From: Rhizobium sp. Pop5
GTDB lineage: Bacteria; Pseudomonadota; Alphaproteobacteria; Rhizobiales; Rhizobiaceae
Assembly (NCBI RefSeq): GCF_024721175.1
Contig: NZ_CP099399.1
Span: 4,366,160-4,430,159, forward strand
Length of the DNA: 64,000 nucleotides
Direction: 5' to 3'
Shown: piece by piece, positions 50,806 to 58,385 of the stretch
How positions within the stretch are numbered: the first letter of the stretch is position 1
Layout of the letters: the number at the start of each line of letters is the position of its first letter
Translations under genes and position numbers: made by a program
Notes under the pieces: generated by a model
What the model saw: the letters and a program-made list of their open reading frames with translations, nothing else
The model's database searches: none
Told to the model about the DNA's origin: nothing

Positions 50806-52467
50806 TCAGCCGAGCCGGATATAGGGCACGTCCTTCTTTGCCACCTCATCAAGCGCCTCCTCATAACCGGCGTCGGCGTAACGCATGACGCCGAGCGCGG
50901 TATCGTTGGTCAGCGCATGGCCCAGCCGTTCGTCGGCGGCATCCGTGCCGTCGGCGATGACGGTGACGCCGCAGCTCGTCATGTAGCCGGCATATCCGCC
51001 GCCGCCGGAATGGACGACGACGAGATCGGCCATCGAAGAGCAGAGCATCATCGCATCGATCAGCGGCCAGTCGGCAATCGCGTCGGAGCCGTCCTTCATC
51101 CGCTCGGTCATGATATTGGGATGGGCCATAGCGCCGGCGTCGAGATGGTCGCGGGAGAAGGCGACGGGGCCTTTTAGTTCGCCGCTCGCAACCAGCGCAT
51201 TGACGCGACGGGCAAGCGCCGTGCGTTCGCCATGGCCGAGCCAGGCGATGCGCGCCGGCAATCCCTCGAAGGGTACGTGCTCGCGCGCCAGCCGAATCCA
51301 GTTGGTGATGATCTTATTGTCGGGGAACAGTTCGAGCAGCAGTTCGTCGATGCGAGCAATATCGCTCTCCTCGCCCGATAGAGCCATCCAGCGGAAGGGC
51401 CCGATCGCCCGGGCAAACAGCGGTCTGAGATAGGCTTCGGTGAAGATCGGGATGTCGAAGGCATTGGCGACACCGCCCTCTTTGGCCTGCGTGCGGATGA
51501 GGTTGCCGTTGTCGAAGACTTCGGAGCCTTTCTTCTGAAACTCCAGCATCGCCCTCACGTGCTCGACGATCGAGGCGCGGCTGGCCGCCATCAACTGGCC
51601 CTGGCCGTCGTCGCGCAAGCCTCTGACCTGGTCGAGATTCATGCCCTTAGGCACGTAGCCGTAGACGAGGTCGTGCGCCGATGTCTGGTCGGTGACGATG
51701 TCGGGCACGATGCCGCGCCTTGCGATCTCGGGATAGACCTCGGCCGCATTGCCGACGAGCCCGACGGACAGTGCCCGCTTTTCCTTCACCGCCGCATCGA
51801 TCATTTGAAGGGCGGTATCGAGACCGGGCGCGATCTCCTGGAGATAGCCGATCTGCTGGCGCTTGTGGGCACGCTCCGGATCGATGTCGACGCAGAGGAT
51901 TGCAGCACCTGCCATGCGGCCGGCGAGCGGCTGCGCGCCGCCCATGCCGCCAAGGCCGGCCGTCAGCACGAACCGGCCATGGAGATCGCCGCCGAAGCGC
52001 CGTTCGGCGATACGCATGAAGATTTCATAGGTGCCCTGGATGACGCCCTGGCTGCCGATATATTGCCAGGCGCCGGCCGTCAGCCCGCCCCAGCAGATCA
52101 GCCCCTTGCGCTGCAGCTCGTAGAACACTTCGGCCTTTGCCCATTGGCCAACGATGTTGCAGTTCGCCATGATGACGAGCGGCGCTTTCGCGTGGGTCTT
52201 CACCAGGCCGATCGGCTTGCCGGACTGGATGAGCAGCGTTTGGTCCTCGTCCATCTCGGTCAGCGCCTTGACGATGCCCTTGTGCGCCGCCCAGTTGCGC
52301 GCCGCCTTGCCGAGCGCGGCATAGACGATCAGGTTTTCGGGATCTTCGCCGACCGAGAGCACGTTTTCGAGCAACCGAAGCAGAGCCTCCTGCCGCCAGC
52401 CCTTGGCGCGCAGTTCCGGTCCGCCGGGAATGGGAAATTTCGGATGGCGTGGATTGGCCTTGGGCAT
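50806..52467 (-). CDS. Urocanase-family hydratase, probable (S-methyl)thiourocanate hydratase
   Basis: A 553-residue HutU homologue. The NAD+-binding and fold motifs are kept: QSGKPIGLVKTHAKAP, GGLTAGAWQYIGSQGVIQGTYE, GLGGMGGAQPLA and SRDHLDAG. Regions invariant in true urocanases are changed: the HHGGGVGMGYS block reads VHSGGGGYAGYM, RHADAGY reads RYADAGY, and the SPNRET segment reads HPNIMT. This points to a different imidazole substrate. It is the last gene of an operon with a MIO-less HutH-like lyase, a hydantoinase, a carbamoylase and an S-methyl-thiohydantoin desulfurase, so thiourocanate or its S-methyl form is the likely substrate. Confidence 0.8.
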   Translation of the reverse strand: MPKANPRHPKFPIPGGPELRAKGWRQEALLRLLENVLSVGEDPENLIVYAALGKAARNWAAHKGIVKALTEMDEDQTLLIQSGKPIGLVKTHAKAPLVIMANCNIVGQWAKAEVFYELQRKGLICWGGLTAGAWQYIGSQGVIQGTYEIFMRIAERRFGGDLHGRFVLTAGLGGMGGAQPLAGRMAGAAILCVDIDPERAHKRQQIGYLQEIAPGLDTALQMIDAAVKEKRALSVGLVGNAAEVYPEIARRGIVPDIVTDQTSAHDLVYGYVPKGMNLDQVRGLRDDGQGQLMAASRASIVEHVRAMLEFQKKGSEVFDNGNLIRTQAKEGGVANAFDIPIFTEAYLRPLFARAIGPFRWMALSGEESDIARIDELLLELFPDNKIITNWIRLAREHVPFEGLPARIAWLGHGERTALARRVNALVASGELKGPVAFSRDHLDAGAMAHPNIMTERMKDGSDAIADWPLIDAMMLCSSMADLVVVHSGGGGYAGYMTSCGVTVIADGTDAADERLGHALTNDTALGVMRYADAGYEEALDEVAKKDVPYIRLG

Positions 52468-52552
52468 CGTAGTTTCCTCGTTTATTCTCTGCTTTTTCCC
52501 ACGGCAGGACTTGCATATTGCCCTTCCATTGCGCTCCGTGCACTCGCGGCCT

Positions 52553-52613
52553 TGCCTCTCACCCCCTCGTCTGTCCTTCGGACATCTTCTCCCCGCTGGA
52601 GAGAAGAGGGATA
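52553..52613. repeat. Rhizobial intergenic palindromic repeat (RIME-like)
   Basis: This stretch contains TGTCC-TTC-GGACA and CTTCTC-CCCGCTG-GAGAGAAG, two small hairpins in the arrangement of the intergenic mosaic elements scattered through Rhizobium genomes. It separates the urocanase-like gene from tfoX within the operon and could affect transcript stability. Assignment is from memory of such elements; a genome-wide search would settle it. Confidence 0.55.
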
Positions 52614-52623
52614 ATCATGCCCA

Positions 52624-52953
52624 TCACTTGCCCGGCAGTGATTCCACATAGGCGAGCGCGGCATCGAGCAAGCGCCGCCTCAGCGCATCGTCGCCGTAGG
52701 CCTCGGCATTGGCTCGCACCCAGCCATGCATTACCCGCTCGCCCATTAGCATCTGGATCACGCCGGGCAGCGCCAGTGCCCAGCCGTCATTGTCCTTGCC
52801 GAGGCGGACTAGCATGCCGTCACTGCGCGCGCCGCAGAGAAGGTTGCCGTTCAGCATGAAGGCCCGGCCGCCGAACATGGATTTTTCGGCAAGGTCCGGC
52901 CGATCGCCGAGTTCCTCGCGCAGCAGTTCCTCAAGGCCTGGATCGCGCGCCAT
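52624..52953 (-). CDS. TfoX N-terminal domain protein
   Basis: A 109-residue protein with the TfoX N-terminal pattern: EKSMFGGRAFMLNGNLLCGARSDGMLVRLG and GVIQMLMGERVMHGWVRAN. It lies 2 bp after the desulfurase gene, so it belongs to the putative ergothioneine operon, yet it has no evident chemical role there. Such single-domain proteins are common and of unknown function. Confidence 0.85.
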   Translation of the reverse strand: MARDPGLEELLREELGDRPDLAEKSMFGGRAFMLNGNLLCGARSDGMLVRLGKDNDGWALALPGVIQMLMGERVMHGWVRANAEAYGDDALRRRLLDAALAYVESLPGK

Positions 52954-52955
52954 GT

Positions 52956-54053
52956 TCAGGCCCTCGCCGCCAGCGCATAACGCGCGATCTCGATCCCCAT
53001 CGCCTTTTCGACGACGGGATAGACAGTCGCGTCGAGTACGCTGGCTGAGAGCGGAATAATATCCATCGGCACATGCAGGATGAAGACGTGCATGCCTTCA
53101 CGAAGCTGGCCGACGCTGAGCGGCTCGCCTTCCTCAGAAAGCGTGGTGATGACGGCGGGGAAGGTCGCAAGCCGCCCGCTCCCCGCATCGTCCACAGCCA
53201 TATATTCGTTCATCACATGCAGCGTCACCGATTTCTCACCCGAGCCGACAGTGACCGTGCCGATGTCGAAGGCTTCCTTGGTGTAGATCACGTCTTTGCG
53301 GCTGATGACGCCTTCGGCGAGGATATGCCCGCCCGTTGCCTTGCAGATCGCGTCGATGACGGCAGACCCGCCGCGCTTTTCCGCCGCGATGATCGCTTCT
53401 CCGAGCGCAAGCGCCATCGAAATGCCGCCGAGCGCCGCGTGGCTGCGGACATAGGAGGCTCGCAGCGGATTGCGGCAGCTGGCGATGAAGCCGCCGGATT
53501 GATCGGCGGCGGCGCGCAGCACCGGCGAGATCTTCGCGGTCGCGCCTTTCACCACCAGCTCGATATAGCGATTCTCGGCCCTGTTGCCGCCGACCGCAGT
53601 CTGGATCATCTGCTCGGGTGAAGCTGCCATGCCGATCGAGCCCATGTCGCCCGTCGGATGGGCACGGATATCGCCGACGGCGTCGACCACCTTGGTGCCG
53701 AGGATCGCCGACGGGAGCCAGCCGTTCAGCGTCGAGGATTTGCCATTCTGGCCGATGATCAGCCCTGAAAGCTTTTCGCCGAGCGCCTCCTGTAACAGCT
53801 GCACAGCCTTCACATAGTCGACGCCCTGCATTTCCCAGGGCGTGGTCGAGGCGGGCGCGCCGATTGCGGCTGCCGTTGCGATCCATTCCTCGTCCTCCAA
53901 TTCGTCGATCGAGACCAGCTCCGGCCTGCCGATATTGACTGCCGCATAACCAAGCATCCGTCCATGATCCGCCCAGCCGCCGCCGCCGGCGGCATAGACG
54001 GAGCCACCCTTGACCGCGGCTTCCACGTCCTTCTCAACCAGTATGCGTCCCAT
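52956..54053 (-). CDS. DUF917 / S-methyl-thiohydantoin desulfurase family protein
   Basis: About 365 residues from the ATG at 54053 (MGRILVEKDVEAAVKGGSVY), preceded by AGGAGG and overlapping the M20 gene end by 20 bp. AAGGGGWADHGRMLGYAAVN, MGSIGMAASPEQMIQ and VISRKDVIYTKEAFDIGTV fit the family once called DUF917, whose characterised member removes the sulfur group from an S-methyl-thiohydantoin. In this operon it would convert the (S-methyl) thiohydantoin propionate into hydantoin propionate, releasing methanethiol or sulfide. The family link is from memory; the substrate is inferred from context. Confidence 0.75.
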   Translation of the reverse strand: MGRILVEKDVEAAVKGGSVYAAGGGGWADHGRMLGYAAVNIGRPELVSIDELEDEEWIATAAAIGAPASTTPWEMQGVDYVKAVQLLQEALGEKLSGLIIGQNGKSSTLNGWLPSAILGTKVVDAVGDIRAHPTGDMGSIGMAASPEQMIQTAVGGNRAENRYIELVVKGATAKISPVLRAAADQSGGFIASCRNPLRASYVRSHAALGGISMALALGEAIIAAEKRGGSAVIDAICKATGGHILAEGVISRKDVIYTKEAFDIGTVTVGSGEKSVTLHVMNEYMAVDDAGSGRLATFPAVITTLSEEGEPLSVGQLREGMHVFILHVPMDIIPLSASVLDATVYPVVEKAMGIEIARYALAARA

Positions 54054-55314
54054 CGGCGGCCTCCTGCTTCGAGTTTTTGTCCATTTCGCGCACCGCCTCG
54101 AACAGCACGGCGGCGCCGAGCGCGATGTCGTCATTGTCAGCCCATTCATCTGCGGAATGGCTGCGGCCCTCCCGGCAGGGCACGAAGATCATTGCCGCCG
54201 GCGCCACCTTGGCGATCCAGGCCGTATCGTGCCCCGCGCCGGAGGCCATGCGCCGGTGTTTCGCACCGACGCGGTCGCAGGCGGCCTCCAGGGTCGACAG
54301 CAGCCCGGCATCGCCTGGCGTCGGCAGGTTGTCGGAAACCCGGTTCTGCGGCTTGATCGTCACGTCGCAGGCGGCAGCGAGCTTTTCGACATGGCCGTCG
54401 AGCCAGCGGCAGAAAGCGTCCATATCGGCGCGGATCTCGGCCCGCCCGTCGATCAGCAGCACCACCTTCGACGGCACGACATTGGCCGCGTTCGGTTCGA
54501 TCCGGAATTCGCCGACGGTCGCCGCGAAATGGCCTGGCGTCTTGGCAAGCTCGGCGGCGGCATTGCGGATATCGAGCACCAACTGCGATGCCGCCACCAG
54601 CGCATCCGACCGCCGGTCCATCGGCGTCGTGCCGGCATGGTCGGCGCGGCCCTCGACGGTGATCTCGATCCGGGTGATGCCCGATATCGCGGTGACGATA
54701 CCGATATCCTCCCTCTCGGCTTCGAGCACCGGTCCCTGCTCGATATGAAGCTCGAGAAAGCCCGTTATATCGGGCCTGTTCTGCTGCATCAGCGCATCGG
54801 GCGTGCCGCCCATCTGCGCTATAGCCTCGGCGAGGTCGCGCCCGTCGCTGATGCGCGAAAGCCAGGCCTCCGGCAGTTGCCCGGTCATGCCGCGGCTACC
54901 GATACAGGAGACGCCGAAGATGCTGACCTCTTCGGCAAGGAAATCGATAATCTCAAGATCGTGGTCGAGCTCGATATTCTGGTCGCGAAGCGCGCGTGCC
55001 ACCTCCAGCGCCGAGATCACTCCGGCAATGCCGTCGAAGCGGCCGCCGTCCGGCACCGTATCGGAGTGCGAGCCGAGCATGATGGTGCCGAGCCATGGTT
55101 TGCGGCCCGTGCGCCGGCCGATCAGGTTGCCAGCGGCATCGATCCGCGTTTCCAGCCCCGCCGCCTTCATCCTCGCTTCAATATAGGCCCGGCCTTCGAG
55201 AAAGAGCGGCGAGAAGGCGCGCCGCGTCCAGGGATGCCCCGGCTCGGTGAGCCCGGCCAGCGCCTCTATATCCTCAGCAATCCGGCCGGCATTGACGGGC
55301 AGATTGCGGCTCAT
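54034..55314 (-). CDS. M20-family N-carbamoyl-L-amino acid hydrolase
   Basis: A 426-residue amidase of the AllC/carbamoylase group. Metal ligands appear in GSHSDTVPDGGRFDGIAGV (His, Asp), LAEEVSIFGVSCIGSRG (Glu-Glu) and ELHIEQGPVLEAE (His), with a dimerisation domain in between. In this operon the likely reaction is N-carbamoyl-L-glutamate to L-glutamate, ammonia and CO2. Coupled to the upstream amidohydrolase by a 4-bp overlap (ATGA). Confidence 0.88.
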   Translation of the reverse strand: MSRNLPVNAGRIAEDIEALAGLTEPGHPWTRRAFSPLFLEGRAYIEARMKAAGLETRIDAAGNLIGRRTGRKPWLGTIMLGSHSDTVPDGGRFDGIAGVISALEVARALRDQNIELDHDLEIIDFLAEEVSIFGVSCIGSRGMTGQLPEAWLSRISDGRDLAEAIAQMGGTPDALMQQNRPDITGFLELHIEQGPVLEAEREDIGIVTAISGITRIEITVEGRADHAGTTPMDRRSDALVAASQLVLDIRNAAAELAKTPGHFAATVGEFRIEPNAANVVPSKVVLLIDGRAEIRADMDAFCRWLDGHVEKLAAACDVTIKPQNRVSDNLPTPGDAGLLSTLEAACDRVGAKHRRMASGAGHDTAWIAKVAPAAMIFVPCREGRSHSADEWADNDDIALGAAVLFEAVREMDKNSKQEAADGTHTG

Positions 55315-56690
55315 GTCGCAGCTCCCGCGATCACCTGACGCGGCAACGGCCGAATGAACCGGCCGGTGCCGGGCTCGGCCAGCACCTTCCCGCCTTCCGC
55401 GATTTTTTCGCCGCGCAGATAGGTGGCCGACACGGTCCAGGGCAGGCGGATGCCGTTGTAAGGGCTCCAGCCGACGACGTTGTTGCCGCTTGCGGACGCA
55501 TCATAGACGCTTTCCTGCGGCTCCAGCACGGTGATATCGGCGTCCTTGCCGGGTGTCAGCGCCCCTTTGATATGATCGAGCCGGAAATGCTTCGCCGGAT
55601 TCTCAGCCATCAGCCTGGCCGCCCAGGTCAGCGGAATGCCGCGTTCGAGGGCACCTTTCACGAAAAGCGGCACCATGACCTCAAGGCCGGGAACACCGGA
55701 TGCATTGGCGAGCATGTCGGGATTGATCTTGCGGTTCTCCGACCAGCTGACGTGATCAGTCGAGACCAGCCAGACATCGCCTTCGGCCACCTTCCGCCAG
55801 AGGCTCTCCACCTCGGCGCGCGGACGAATGGGCGGATTGATTTTCGCCTTGCCGCCGAGGCGCTTTACGTCGTTTTCCTCGTCGAGCGTCAGATAGTGGA
55901 CGCAGCACTCGACCGTGGCCTCGAAACCGTCACGGCGATAGGCGCGGGCGATATCGTAGCCGCGCCGGAGCGAGCAGTGCACCACATGCGAGGGGCAGCC
56001 GGTATTGGCGCCTGTCTCAAAAATCGTGTGCATCGCCAGGAGCTCGGTGATCGCAGGCCGCGACAGCCCATGCGCCCGCCAATCGGTGATGCCGCTCGCC
56101 TTCACCTGCTCCATATAGCTGCGCACCGCCTCGTCATCCTCGTTGTGCACCCCGGCCGTCAGCCCGGTCGGCGCGATCGCCGCAAAACAGGCATCAAGCA
56201 GCGCGGGCGGAATGCGCGGAAAACGCTTGGGATCGGTGCCGAAGGTCGAGAACTTGAAGGCTGCGACACCCGCCGCGACCATTTCACGGATTCGCGCTGG
56301 GCCTTCCTCGGGGTCGACGGTGCCGTAAAGCGCGAAATCGACGCGCGCCTGCGGGCTCGCATGGTCGATCTTCCACTTTACGGCCGCAGCCGAACAGACG
56401 AGATTGCCTTCGTCATAGGGCATATCGACGATCGTTGTCACGCCGCCGGCCGCCGCCGAACGTGTCGACCAGATGAAATCCTCCTGGTCCTTCTGGGAAA
56501 GCGAATGCACCTGCGCGTCGATGGCGCCGGGCAGGATCAGCGCCTTGCCCAGCAGATGCCGTTCGCGGGCCGCAGGCGGCACGCCGAGGCCGACCTCGGC
56601 GATCCTGCCGTCGCGGACGGCGACATAACCCTCCTCGAGAATGCGATCCGGCAGCACCACCGTGCCCTGCAGAACGAGATCGAAGTCCAT
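55311..56690 (-). CDS. Hydantoinase/allantoinase-like amidohydrolase
   Basis: A 459-residue cyclic amidohydrolase. The fold and most metal ligands are there: the carbamylated-Lys candidate in VAAFKFSTFG, His in AGVHNEDDE, His in SHVVHCSLRRG and Asp in LVSTDHVSW. The first metal motif reads GAIDAQVHS, so the first His of the HxH pair is Gln. In the operon it would open the ring of hydantoin-5-propionate to N-carbamoylglutamate. It starts 20 bp after the lyase stop. Confidence 0.82.
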   Translation of the reverse strand: MDFDLVLQGTVVLPDRILEEGYVAVRDGRIAEVGLGVPPAARERHLLGKALILPGAIDAQVHSLSQKDQEDFIWSTRSAAAGGVTTIVDMPYDEGNLVCSAAAVKWKIDHASPQARVDFALYGTVDPEEGPARIREMVAAGVAAFKFSTFGTDPKRFPRIPPALLDACFAAIAPTGLTAGVHNEDDEAVRSYMEQVKASGITDWRAHGLSRPAITELLAMHTIFETGANTGCPSHVVHCSLRRGYDIARAYRRDGFEATVECCVHYLTLDEENDVKRLGGKAKINPPIRPRAEVESLWRKVAEGDVWLVSTDHVSWSENRKINPDMLANASGVPGLEVMVPLFVKGALERGIPLTWAARLMAENPAKHFRLDHIKGALTPGKDADITVLEPQESVYDASASGNNVVGWSPYNGIRLPWTVSATYLRGEKIAEGGKVLAEPGTGRFIRPLPRQVIAGAAT

Positions 56691-56709
56691 GCCGCTTCCT
56701 CCTCTGAGA

Positions 56710-58296
56710 TCAGATCGCCACCGGTTCTTGGCGGCCGAGCCGCTCCTCTATGCGCTCAAGCGAACTGAGCGCGAAGAAATCGTCGAAGGAGGCGATCGGA
56801 ACCTGCTCGGTCAGTTTCGAAAGGAAGTCATCCGAGCCGAGTTCCTCCTCGATCGCCTCGACCTCCGCCGAGAGCGGCCGATCGATCGTATAGAAATCGG
56901 CATGTTTGCGCACGACCTCATAGAGCATGGCCGCGACACCCCTGGGCTCGTCTCCCAGAATGTCCATCGCCTGGGCGGAGAGCAAGGCCTCAAGGGCGGC
57001 AAGGCGCTTCAACGCCCGCATCTGCCGGTCGAAGCGCTCGATGACGAGTGGCAGGAAGGCTGCCTCATCCTCCAGCCCGGCGGCCACCACCAGCGACTGG
57101 GCGGAAACCGGGTTGGACATCGACAGTACGCGCGAAAAGATCTCGCCGGCGAGCTTGATGATCGGCCCGAAGCCGGTGGCGATGCGTCCCGGCGGCACGA
57201 GATTGACCGGCAGGTCGCGTCGCTGGCCGTTGCCGAGAATGACGCAGCGATTGAAGGCGTTGCGCGCCGCATGCGCCATGCAGAGCGCTGCCGATTCGAG
57301 CAGGATCGTCACATCGAGCGGAAGAGAACCGCCCGATGTCATCACCCGGCCTTCGACGACGACGGGATTGTCGTCCGAGCGGCCGGTGGCGGCCAGGATC
57401 TTGTGACCCGTCGAAAGCAGGTTTTCGATCACCGCGCCGAATACTTGGGCGATCATGCGCAGGCTGAGCGGATCCTGCACATGCGTGGCGACGGGCCAGT
57501 TCCAGTCGTCAGAGGCGTTGCAGAGCCAGGCGCCGATCAACGCCTCGCGCGCCGTGCCGACGTGGCGGACCGCTTTCCAGGGATCGCGGGAGGCGCCGAG
57601 CGCGCCCGATGCCATCATGCCGGTCGCGAGCAGTACGCGGATCGAGGCTGCAGCACTCCGCGTCGTTTCCGCCGCCGCGGCAAAGCTCACCGCGTTGACG
57701 CTGAGCGAGGCGAGACTGTCGCGCGGCGCCATCCGCACCGGTTCGAGCCCTGCTGCGCGGAAGGCTTCCGCCGCCTGCATCCGGTTGCCACGATACATCG
57801 CTTCGCCGACGCCGGTCAGCACCGCGCCGATCTGCCCCATCAGCCCGATATCGGCGCAGCCGATCGAGCCGGTGCGCCGCACGACCGGAATGAGGTCGGC
57901 CTTGAGCATCGTCATATAGGCGTGGACCAGCTCCGGCGTGCAGCCGACCTGGCCGGTCAGCGCCGTATTGATGCGGATCGCCATGGCGTTGCGCACGACA
58001 TTGCAGGAAAAGGGCGTGCCGGTGCCGAAATGATGGGCACGCACCAGGCCGAGATTGAAGGTGTCGAGTTCGTCGGCCGACCACTCCACATCCTTCATCG
58101 CGCCCACACCTGTTGTCGAGCCGTAGACGGGCATGCCGGAGGCGATTGCATCTTCGACGATCTCGCGCGCGATCGCAATGCGGGCCATGCCCGTCGGCGA
58201 AGCCGAAATCGTCGCCTTGCCCGCACCGATTGCCACCATCTCGGCAAAGCCGAGCGGTCGTCCGGAAAGTTCGATACCGGGGCGTTCGTGCTGCAT
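56710..58296 (-). CDS. HutH-like lyase without MIO triad, probable ergothionase
   Basis: A 528-residue member of the aromatic amino acid lyase superfamily. YGSTTGVG (58-65) matches the YGxNTGFG region, and the C-terminal half (SLSVNAVSFAAAAETTRSAA, SDDNPVVVEGRVMTSG) keeps the fold. The MIO-forming Ala-Ser-Gly after GSIG is replaced: residues 143-150 read GSIGCADI. It therefore cannot make the MIO cofactor needed by histidine ammonia-lyases. Ergothionase, which eliminates trimethylamine from ergothioneine, is a known MIO-less relative. The neighbours supply the remaining steps to glutamate. First gene of the operon; the promoter should lie in the 89-bp gap after ubiB. Confidence 0.82.
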   Translation of the reverse strand: MQHERPGIELSGRPLGFAEMVAIGAGKATISASPTGMARIAIAREIVEDAIASGMPVYGSTTGVGAMKDVEWSADELDTFNLGLVRAHHFGTGTPFSCNVVRNAMAIRINTALTGQVGCTPELVHAYMTMLKADLIPVVRRTGSIGCADIGLMGQIGAVLTGVGEAMYRGNRMQAAEAFRAAGLEPVRMAPRDSLASLSVNAVSFAAAAETTRSAAASIRVLLATGMMASGALGASRDPWKAVRHVGTAREALIGAWLCNASDDWNWPVATHVQDPLSLRMIAQVFGAVIENLLSTGHKILAATGRSDDNPVVVEGRVMTSGGSLPLDVTILLESAALCMAHAARNAFNRCVILGNGQRRDLPVNLVPPGRIATGFGPIIKLAGEIFSRVLSMSNPVSAQSLVVAAGLEDEAAFLPLVIERFDRQMRALKRLAALEALLSAQAMDILGDEPRGVAAMLYEVVRKHADFYTIDRPLSAEVEAIEEELGSDDFLSKLTEQVPIASFDDFFALSSLERIEERLGRQEPVAI

Positions 58297-58385
58297 GTGC
58301 CTATCTCCTTGAAAATGAGATTAAGCGAGGCCTCCGTCACATGGGATATCCCAAATGCCGAACACAGCATGTTTTTGCGAACGGA

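What the first reader, a model, noticed from the sequence alone, without database searches (positions are those of the whole stretch)
50806..58296. Complete operon for ergothioneine or S-methyl-ergothioneine breakdown to glutamate
Six minus-strand genes with overlaps or short gaps encode a MIO-less HutH-like lyase, a hydantoinase-like amidohydrolase, an M20 carbamoylase, a DUF917/S-methyl-thiohydantoin desulfurase, a TfoX protein and a divergent urocanase. The order of reactions would be: loss of trimethylamine, hydration, desulfuration, ring opening, decarbamoylation, giving L-glutamate. Automated annotation would probably call this a histidine utilisation operon with hutH and hutU, which the active-site changes contradict. 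Known: each family's chemistry. Inferred: the substrate.
Basis: partly seen in the sequence, partly recalled or inferred. Interest (0 to 1): 0.85.

Follow-up and report, generated by a model that had tools for sequence, protein, structure and literature searches.

The report
Ergothioneine breakdown operon in Rhizobium
A soil bacterium carries a full set of genes for dismantling the antioxidant ergothioneine, a known pathway whose first enzyme is usually mis-named here, and a shared DNA site appears to tie it to a distant importer and regulator.

Summary
Confirmed: six co-directed genes (58296-50806, minus strand) encode a MIO-less HutH-family lyase, hydantoinase, M20 carbamoylase, DUF917 protein, TfoX_N protein and urocanase homologue. 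Four pass curated NCBIfam cut-offs for ergothioneine breakdown (thiourocanate hydratase, thiohydantoin desulfurase, ErtD, ErtE). B and C fail the S-methyl models, which an Agrobacterium plasmid operon passes. So the substrate is most likely ergothioneine, not S-methyl-ergothioneine. A separate hutUGHI set serves histidine. The lyase shares active-site residues with ergothionases, at about 30% identity to a Burkholderia one, and falls outside the HutH group in a tree. The pathway is known.

What may be new lies outside the given coordinates. A site, TGTNCR-N8-GATATSCC, stands before the lyase in 77 of 80 named related loci. Its stricter form occurs without mismatch twice in this 6.7 Mb genome: before the lyase, and between a tandem-HTH LysR gene and an OpuAC-type betaine ABC transporter (C2:112-118 kb). 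Relatives of that regulator lie beside ergothioneine genes in other families, often with the same site. I infer one regulon split over two loci. TfoX was found only in Rhizobium loci; its role is unknown.

The parts
58343..58364 (-). operator-like site TGTTCGGCATTTGGGATATCCC in the ubiB-lyase gap
   Evidence: Pattern TGTNCR-N8-GATATSCC in 77 of 80 named loci; the form TGTTCR-N8-GATATCCC has 2 mismatch-free sites in the own genome
58317..58329 (-). conserved block CTCGCTTAATCTC 13 nt behind the operator, possibly a -10 region
   Evidence: Fixed spacing and strong column conservation in the 66 gaps with an exact core; sequence; function inferred
56710..58296 (-). A: MIO-less HutH-family lyase, predicted ergothionase
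   Evidence: PF00221; best PDB match 6s7j ergothionase, E 1e-49; residues; tree
55311..56690 (-). D: hydantoin-5-propionate amidohydrolase ErtD
   Evidence: NF058538, 779.1 against cut-off 600
54034..55314 (-). E: N-carbamyl-L-glutamate amidohydrolase ErtE
   Evidence: NF058540, 635.2 against cut-off 520; a general Zn-dependent hydrolase model scores higher, 839.1 against 486
52956..54053 (-). C: thiohydantoin desulfurase (S-Me-THD/DUF917 family); the ORF is open to 54149
   Evidence: NF058529, 595.9 against cut-off 440; S-methyl model NF058532, 273.8 against 450, failed
52624..52953 (-). T: TfoX_N-domain protein of unknown role
   Evidence: PF04993; in 72 of 99 loci compared and 0 of 15 order-search loci of other genera
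50806..52467 (-). B: thiourocanate hydratase (urocanase family)
   Evidence: NF058530, 1058.9 against cut-off 930; S-methyl model NF058531, 736 against 880, failed; it also passes hutU, 696 against 375

Best explanation
This is the catabolic half of an ergothioneine-use system in a Rhizobium (leguminosarum/etli group). Lyase A removes trimethylamine from ergothioneine without a MIO cofactor, giving thiourocanate. Hydratase B adds water to give the thiohydantoin propionate. C removes the sulfur, giving hydantoin-5-propionate. D opens the ring to N-carbamyl-L-glutamate, and E releases L-glutamate. The order and chemistry are those of the published five-step pathway (recalled); their use here is inferred from family membership. 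The substrate is probably imported, since no EgtD-family gene was found. Inferred import and control: an OpuAC-type quaternary-amine ABC transporter at C2:112-116 kb and a divergent tandem-HTH LysR regulator at C2:116.6-117.8 kb, with the operator TGTTCR-N8-GATATCCC at both loci. TfoX is an addition seen in Rhizobium loci, with no assigned role.
For: Four curated models passed. S-methyl models failed here but passed by a control operon. The genome's own HutU fails both thio models. Best PDB match of the lyase is ergothionase. MIO triad lost, with K68, D193, D308 and K381 shared with 6s7j and a Burkholderia lyase but not HutH. A 100/100 branch parts it from HutH. Operon order in 76 of 80 named loci. 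Separate hutUGHI. No EgtD hit. Operator in 77 of 80 named loci and 2 mismatch-free sites in the genome, the second at the regulator/transporter. Regulator in 15 of 19 genomes passing the desulfurase model and 1 of 24 not matching it.
Against: No biochemical evidence. The lyase is only about 30% identical to the Burkholderia lyase, on a long stem in an unrooted tree with 7 of 18 inner forks open. B also passes the hutU cut-off. The binding protein ranks nearest OsmF/ProX-type structures, with EgtUC much lower. The operator pattern was loosened after seeing relatives' sites. Loci L041, L042 and L166 have the regulator but not the site. The lyase fold model is poor.
Confidence: 0.88

Rival explanations
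1. The operon degrades S-methyl-ergothioneine, with methanethiol leaving at the DUF917 step.
For: The DUF917 family includes S-methyl thiohydantoin desulfurases, and C and B match those models weakly (273.8 and 736 bits).
Against: Both scores are below the curated cut-offs (450 and 880), while the non-methyl models are passed. An A. tumefaciens pAt operon shows the reverse.
Confidence: 0.04
2. It is a duplicate histidine-utilisation operon acting on histidine and urocanate.
For: Lyase and hydratase belong to the HutH and HutU superfamilies, and B passes the hutU cut-off (696 against 375).
Against: The lyase fails hutH (204 against 539) and B fits thiourocanate hydratase far better (1058.9). 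The MIO triad is absent. Hydantoinase, carbamoylase and desulfurase have no place in the hut route. A complete hutUGHI set is on C3.
Confidence: 0.02
3. The main natural substrate is ergothioneine sulfonate or another oxidised form.
For: [quoted passage not shown] paper not held). Activity of T. denticola ergothionase on the sulfonate is recalled.
Against: A thiohydantoin desulfurase is needed for the thione but presumably not for a sulfonate, which could leave as sulfite (reasoning, not tested).
Confidence: 0.06

Closest known systems
Five-step bacterial ergothioneine catabolism (Beliaeva, Leisinger and Seebeck 2021; title seen in a reference list) and the NCBIfam ert models
   Same: Hydratase, desulfurase, ErtD and ErtE pass the curated cut-offs; gene content covers all five steps.
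   Different: The lyase is a divergent subfamily. TfoX is inserted, and transporter and regulator lie at a second locus. The paper is not held, so gene-by-gene comparison with it was not possible.
Ergothionase of T. denticola (PDB 6s7j) and the Burkholderia-type lyase
   Same: No MIO triad; shared K68, D193, D308, K381; best PDB match.
   Different: About 30% identity to the Burkholderia lyase; separate clade on a long stem.
S-methyl-ergothioneine pathway (NF058531, NF058532), seen here on A. tumefaciens pAt
   Same: Same protein families and similar logic.
   Different: Window proteins fail those models; pAt has a GST and a molybdopterin S/N-oxide reductase beside the genes and no annotated lyase in the 17 kb read.
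EgtU ergothioneine importer of Firmicutes (PMC9732360, passages)
   Same: Same broad class of quaternary-amine binding proteins.
   Different: The Devosia-type relative ranks closest to OsmF/ProX-type chains, with EgtUC well below; EgtU specificity residues were not tested.

Membership tests
Ergothionase | HutH-family fold without the MIO triad (absence of MIO stated in PMC13405746) | tested here: met
   GSIGCADIG in place of GSVGASGDL; PF00221
Ergothionase | Residues shared by known ergothionases and not HutH | tested here: met
   K68, D193, D308, K381 shared with 6s7j and the Burkholderia lyase. Which residues are catalytic in 6s7j was not read; the paper is not held
Ergothionase | Grouping with known ergothionases in a tree | tested here: inconclusive
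   Parted from HutH at 100/100, but unrooted and on a long stem
Ergothionase | Trimethylamine release from ergothioneine | not testable with these tools
   Needs an enzyme assay
Thiourocanate hydratase (NF058530) | Curated score cut-off | tested here: met
   1058.9 against 930; own HutU scores 684.8 and fails
Thiohydantoin desulfurase (NF058529) | Curated score cut-off | tested here: met
   595.9 against 440
ErtD and ErtE (NF058538, NF058540) | Curated score cut-offs | tested here: met
   779.1 against 600 and 635.2 against 520
S-methyl-ergothioneine pathway (NF058531, NF058532) | Curated score cut-offs | tested here: not met
   736 against 880 and 273.8 against 450; control operon passes both
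Histidine utilisation (hutH) | hutH cut-off and MIO triad | tested here: not met
   204.3 against 539.15; triad absent
Histidine utilisation (hutU) | hutU cut-off | tested here: met
   B scores 696 against 375, but the thiourocanate model fits better at 1058.9
EgtU ergothioneine transporter | Ergothioneine-specific residues of the binding protein | not tested
   Residue list read in passages of PMC9732360; no residue-by-residue alignment to EgtUC was made

The most novel reading that the evidence does not exclude
In Rhizobium, ergothioneine use is one regulon split over two unlinked loci. A tandem-HTH LysR regulator senses ergothioneine or a pathway product and acts at TGTTCR-N8-GATATCCC before both the catabolic operon and an OpuAC-type ABC importer that takes up ergothioneine. 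The same regulator-operator pair controls ergothioneine clusters in other alphaproteobacterial families. The lyase belongs to a distinct, usually mis-named ergothionase subfamily common in plant-associated Rhizobium.
Probability: 0.7. Interest if true: 0.6.

Novelty: new member of a known kind. Interest (0 to 1): 0.48.

Why it matters
A recent survey of ergothionase started from the Burkholderia sequence, reported the enzyme as definitively identified in only a few microorganisms, and itself warned that divergent homologues were not counted (PMC13405746, passages). This lyase is such a divergent homologue: where public records name it, they say histidine ammonia-lyase or aromatic amino acid lyase, yet it stands beside the complete downstream pathway in 76 of 80 named loci fetched. 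Estimates based on that query would probably miss it. The predicted regulator and operator give a handle for finding further ergothioneine genes, and a testable sensor. The result also suggests that legume symbionts can use ergothioneine as a nitrogen and carbon source.

Tried and rejected
S-methyl-ergothioneine as substrate: rejected on model scores with a positive control. Histidine utilisation: rejected. Turnover of self-made ergothioneine: not supported, no EgtD-family hit in the genome; that search's control also rang in E. coli, so the model is not fully specific, and other biosynthesis genes were not sought. Structure prediction of the lyase: low confidence (pLDDT 56.5); its fold search ranks 6s7j first but at TM about 0.6 with close runners-up, so it carries little weight. 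Sigma-70 and terminator scan: found numbers no higher than shuffles give in any useful way (2 against a mean of 1.4; 3 against 5.4). TfoX as a general pathway member: rejected, absent from 15 of 15 order-search loci of other genera; two of those 15 (L052, L056) hold little more than a DUF917 gene.

The first operator searches with a longer core gave one site in the genome and none at the transporter. The second site appeared only after same-genus relatives suggested a freer centre, so the pattern is partly post hoc. The long pattern gave no site beside E-C-B in L163, L164 or L165.

Literature: four primary papers (ergothionase structure, five-step pathway, gut cross-feeding, sulfonate pathway) were looked up and are not held. 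Searches (20 of 31 listed) listed no paper on a Rhizobium ergothioneine operon or its regulator; two looser ones (searches listed of 1,427 and of 6,133) were swamped by other terms. Only listings were seen there. The fate of trimethylamine was not examined.
Full report
OBSERVATION. The window is the end of contig C2 (4366160-4430159) of a 6.74 Mb genome. The closest named lyases are from the Rhizobium leguminosarum/etli group. Six intact genes run on the minus strand from 58296 to 50806. Pfam families: aromatic lyase; amidohydrolase; M20 peptidase; S-Me-THD N and C domains (formerly DUF917, recalled); TfoX_N; and urocanase with all three domains. One start needs correcting: C probably begins at 54053, because both desulfurase models align from residue 35-36 on. 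Upstream lies ubiB, with an 89-nt gap that holds AAGGAGA, a good ribosome-binding site, before the lyase.

WHICH PATHWAY. NCBIfam 20.0 has curated models for this pathway, and four of the six proteins pass them: B thiourocanate hydratase (1058.9 against 930), C thiohydantoin desulfurase (595.9 against 440), D ErtD (779.1 against 600) and E ErtE (635.2 against 520). B also passes hutU (696 against 375), and E scores higher still on a general Zn-dependent hydrolase model (839.1 against 486). The S-methyl models are failed by B (736 against 880) and C (273.8 against 450). An A. tumefaciens pAt operon gives the opposite result (975.8 and 555.1, both passing; 725.3 and 271.8 on the non-methyl models, both failing), so the models discriminate. 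The genome's own HutU fails both thio models (684.8 and 703.8). TfoX matches no NCBIfam model. B and C are 70% and 68% identical to proteins near an ergothionase-type lyase on a Burkholderia arboris replicon. [quoted passage not shown] The paper is not held, and its chemistry is recalled.

THE LYASE. It scores 204 against a hutH cut-off of 539, and its best solved relative is T. denticola ergothionase 6s7j (E 1e-49), ahead of every HutH entry listed. In an alignment of 21 lyases the MIO triad is replaced (GSIGCADIG; SSIGEGDI in 6s7j; GSVGASGDL in the genome's own HutH). Positions K68, D193, D308 and K381 (window numbering) are shared with 6s7j and the Burkholderia lyase but not with HutH; one related lyase (L054) has R at K68. 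In a maximum-likelihood tree a 100/100 branch parts the two HutH rows and two other lyases of this genome from the 17 remaining rows, which include 6s7j and the window. The tree is unrooted, 7 of 18 inner forks are open, several end branches are long, and the window's clade sits on a stem of 4.5 changes per column, so sisterhood with known ergothionases is not shown. No ergothionase model was matched by this lyase, nor by the Burkholderia one, so that absence is not evidence against. A fold model was poor (pLDDT 56.5) and is given little weight, although Foldseek ranked 6s7j first.

HISTIDINE PATHWAY ELSEWHERE. On C3 the genome has hutU (974 bits), hutG (402), hutH (721) and hutI (429), all over their cut-offs (location). 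The genome has no EgtD-family hit, so the substrate is probably imported.

DISTRIBUTION AND CONTEXT. The desulfurase model is passed by 18 of 297 genomes of the order and 6 of 398 of the phylum; the two sets overlap. Of 99 loci compared (the window, 18 from the order search, 80 named loci), 72 have TfoX. Among the 80 named loci, 68 have the full operon with TfoX, 8 the full operon without it (one of them a MAG, L152), 3 only the lyase beside ubiB (L151, L153, L154), and 1 is cut by its contig end (L105). None of the 15 order-search loci from other genera has TfoX; L056 there is only a 34% DUF917 match and L052 shows only C. In the two lyase-only Rhizobium genomes, E, C and B lie elsewhere together (L163, L164), with no D found in the 20 kb read. 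In Shinella (L165) C and B are broken into pieces. In two Devosia-type loci whose genes I read (L045, L048) the lyase is followed by a four-gene ABC transporter and then D-E-C-B; L046, L047, L050, L051, L053 and L054 show similar spacing and were not read for it. Other loci are partial: L039, L041, L042, L049, L052, L055, L056 and Paracoccus L175 show no lyase in the stretch read.

THE OPERATOR. The ubiB-lyase gap holds TGTTCGGCATTTGGGATATCCC (58364-58343), followed 13 nt later by CTCGCTTAATCTC. The core GGGATATCCC is exact in 66 of the 80 gaps examined (the window and 79 named loci). Of the other 14, eight show a one-base variant in the part printed, five more match the looser pattern below, and L154 has neither. 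The pattern TGTNCRNNNNNNNNGATATSCC is found in 77 of 80 named loci (not L113, L151, L154), each time ahead of the lyase. It also precedes ergothioneine genes in other families: before the lyase in L045-L048, L050 and L051; before transporter genes in L049; before both the lyase and D on a Rhizobium sp. SL42 plasmid (L174); and before D in Paracoccus aminophilus (L175). In a set of 21 loci that I chose (19 of them neither Rhizobium nor the MAG L152; L056 left out), 10 hold it against 0 in each of 20 Markov resamples. The 11 without it are L039, L041, L042, L052, L053, L054 (a near variant), L055, L166, L172, L176 and L177.

THE REGULATOR AND TRANSPORTER. A LysR-family protein lies next to ergothioneine genes in L041, L042, L045-L051, L054 (in two frames), L152, L166, L174 and L175; two HTH_1 stretches were confirmed in the three examined (the genome's own copy, L175, L152). 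In L152 it sits between ubiB and the lyase, a plausible forerunner of the Rhizobium arrangement. The only full-length relative in this genome is at C2:116566-117834 (161 bits with the L152 query; next best 42). It is divergent from an ABC transporter whose binding protein (OpuAC family) is 65% identical to that of the Devosia-type operon. Three other Rhizobium genomes have the same pairing. The whole genome holds two mismatch-free matches to TGTTCRNNNNNNNNGATATCCC: before the lyase, and between this regulator and transporter. Three more sites have one mismatch; the reversed control pattern has one hit at up to one mismatch. Caveats: the centre of the pattern was freed after seeing the relatives' transporter sites, so the count is partly post hoc, and the second site overlaps the assumed start codon of the LysR gene, whose true start may lie downstream. 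The regulator (E at most 1e-20) is found in 15 of 19 genomes that pass the desulfurase model and 1 of 24 that do not match it (Fisher p 3.5e-7). Within the family it is 5 of 5 against 1 of 12. I picked the 24 from the listed non-matching genomes, and genomes are not independent. The four exceptions are G210 (gene in two frames in L054), G226, G244 and G288. The one extra, G591, carries D and E beside the regulator. If C2 is a circular chromosome the two loci are about 122 kb apart; circularity was not tested.

READING. Shown: gene content, family membership by curated cut-offs, loss of MIO, conservation of operon and operator, co-occurrence of the regulator. Inferred: the substrate, the reaction order in this organism, import through the second locus, and control by the LysR protein. 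The Devosia-type binding protein ranks nearest OsmF/ProX-type structures and EgtUC ranks lower, so ergothioneine specificity is not shown. TfoX is under purifying selection (pN/pS 0.28, 66 comparisons) but has no assigned role.

VERDICT. The lyase is divergent, and the predicted regulon did not turn up in the listings of the searches made.

Noticed in passing
L005:15407-16900 (C3:99.4-100.9 kb) and L002 (C2:2384522-2385892): Two further PF00221 lyases of this genome also lack the MIO triad (GSAGY-LTHNAH and GSVGY-LAVEGH, three residues shorter) but group with HutH; the first lies near ABC-transporter genes close to the hut operon. Function unknown.
   Followed up: partly
L176 (A. tumefaciens Ach5 plasmid pAt 403214-420161): Operon passing both S-methyl-ergothioneine models, with a GST, a molybdopterin S/N-oxide reductase, an IclR regulator and a branched-chain-type ABC transporter, and no annotated lyase in the stretch.
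   Followed up: partly
L173 (Polaromonas sp. JS666 plasmid 1, 303730-305349): A MIO-less ergothionase-type lyase beside an ornithine cyclodeaminase gene, without the other ergothioneine enzymes in the 19.5 kb read.
   Followed up: no
L177 (Microvirga ossetica plasmid 518946-538028): Desulfurase, hydantoinase and carbamoylase relatives with oxidoreductase genes but no hydratase or lyase in the stretch: perhaps a route for another thiohydantoin.
   Followed up: no
L151, L153, L154 beside ubiB; L163-L165: In R. wenxiniae, R. smilacinae and a Shinella the lyase stands alone beside ubiB while E, C and B lie elsewhere; in the Shinella record C and B are in broken frames.
   Followed up: partly
ubiB-lyase gap of L087, L080, L083, L099, L101: About 50-110 extra nt between the operator block and the lyase start, holding a GC-rich palindrome that looks like a small repeat element.
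   Followed up: no
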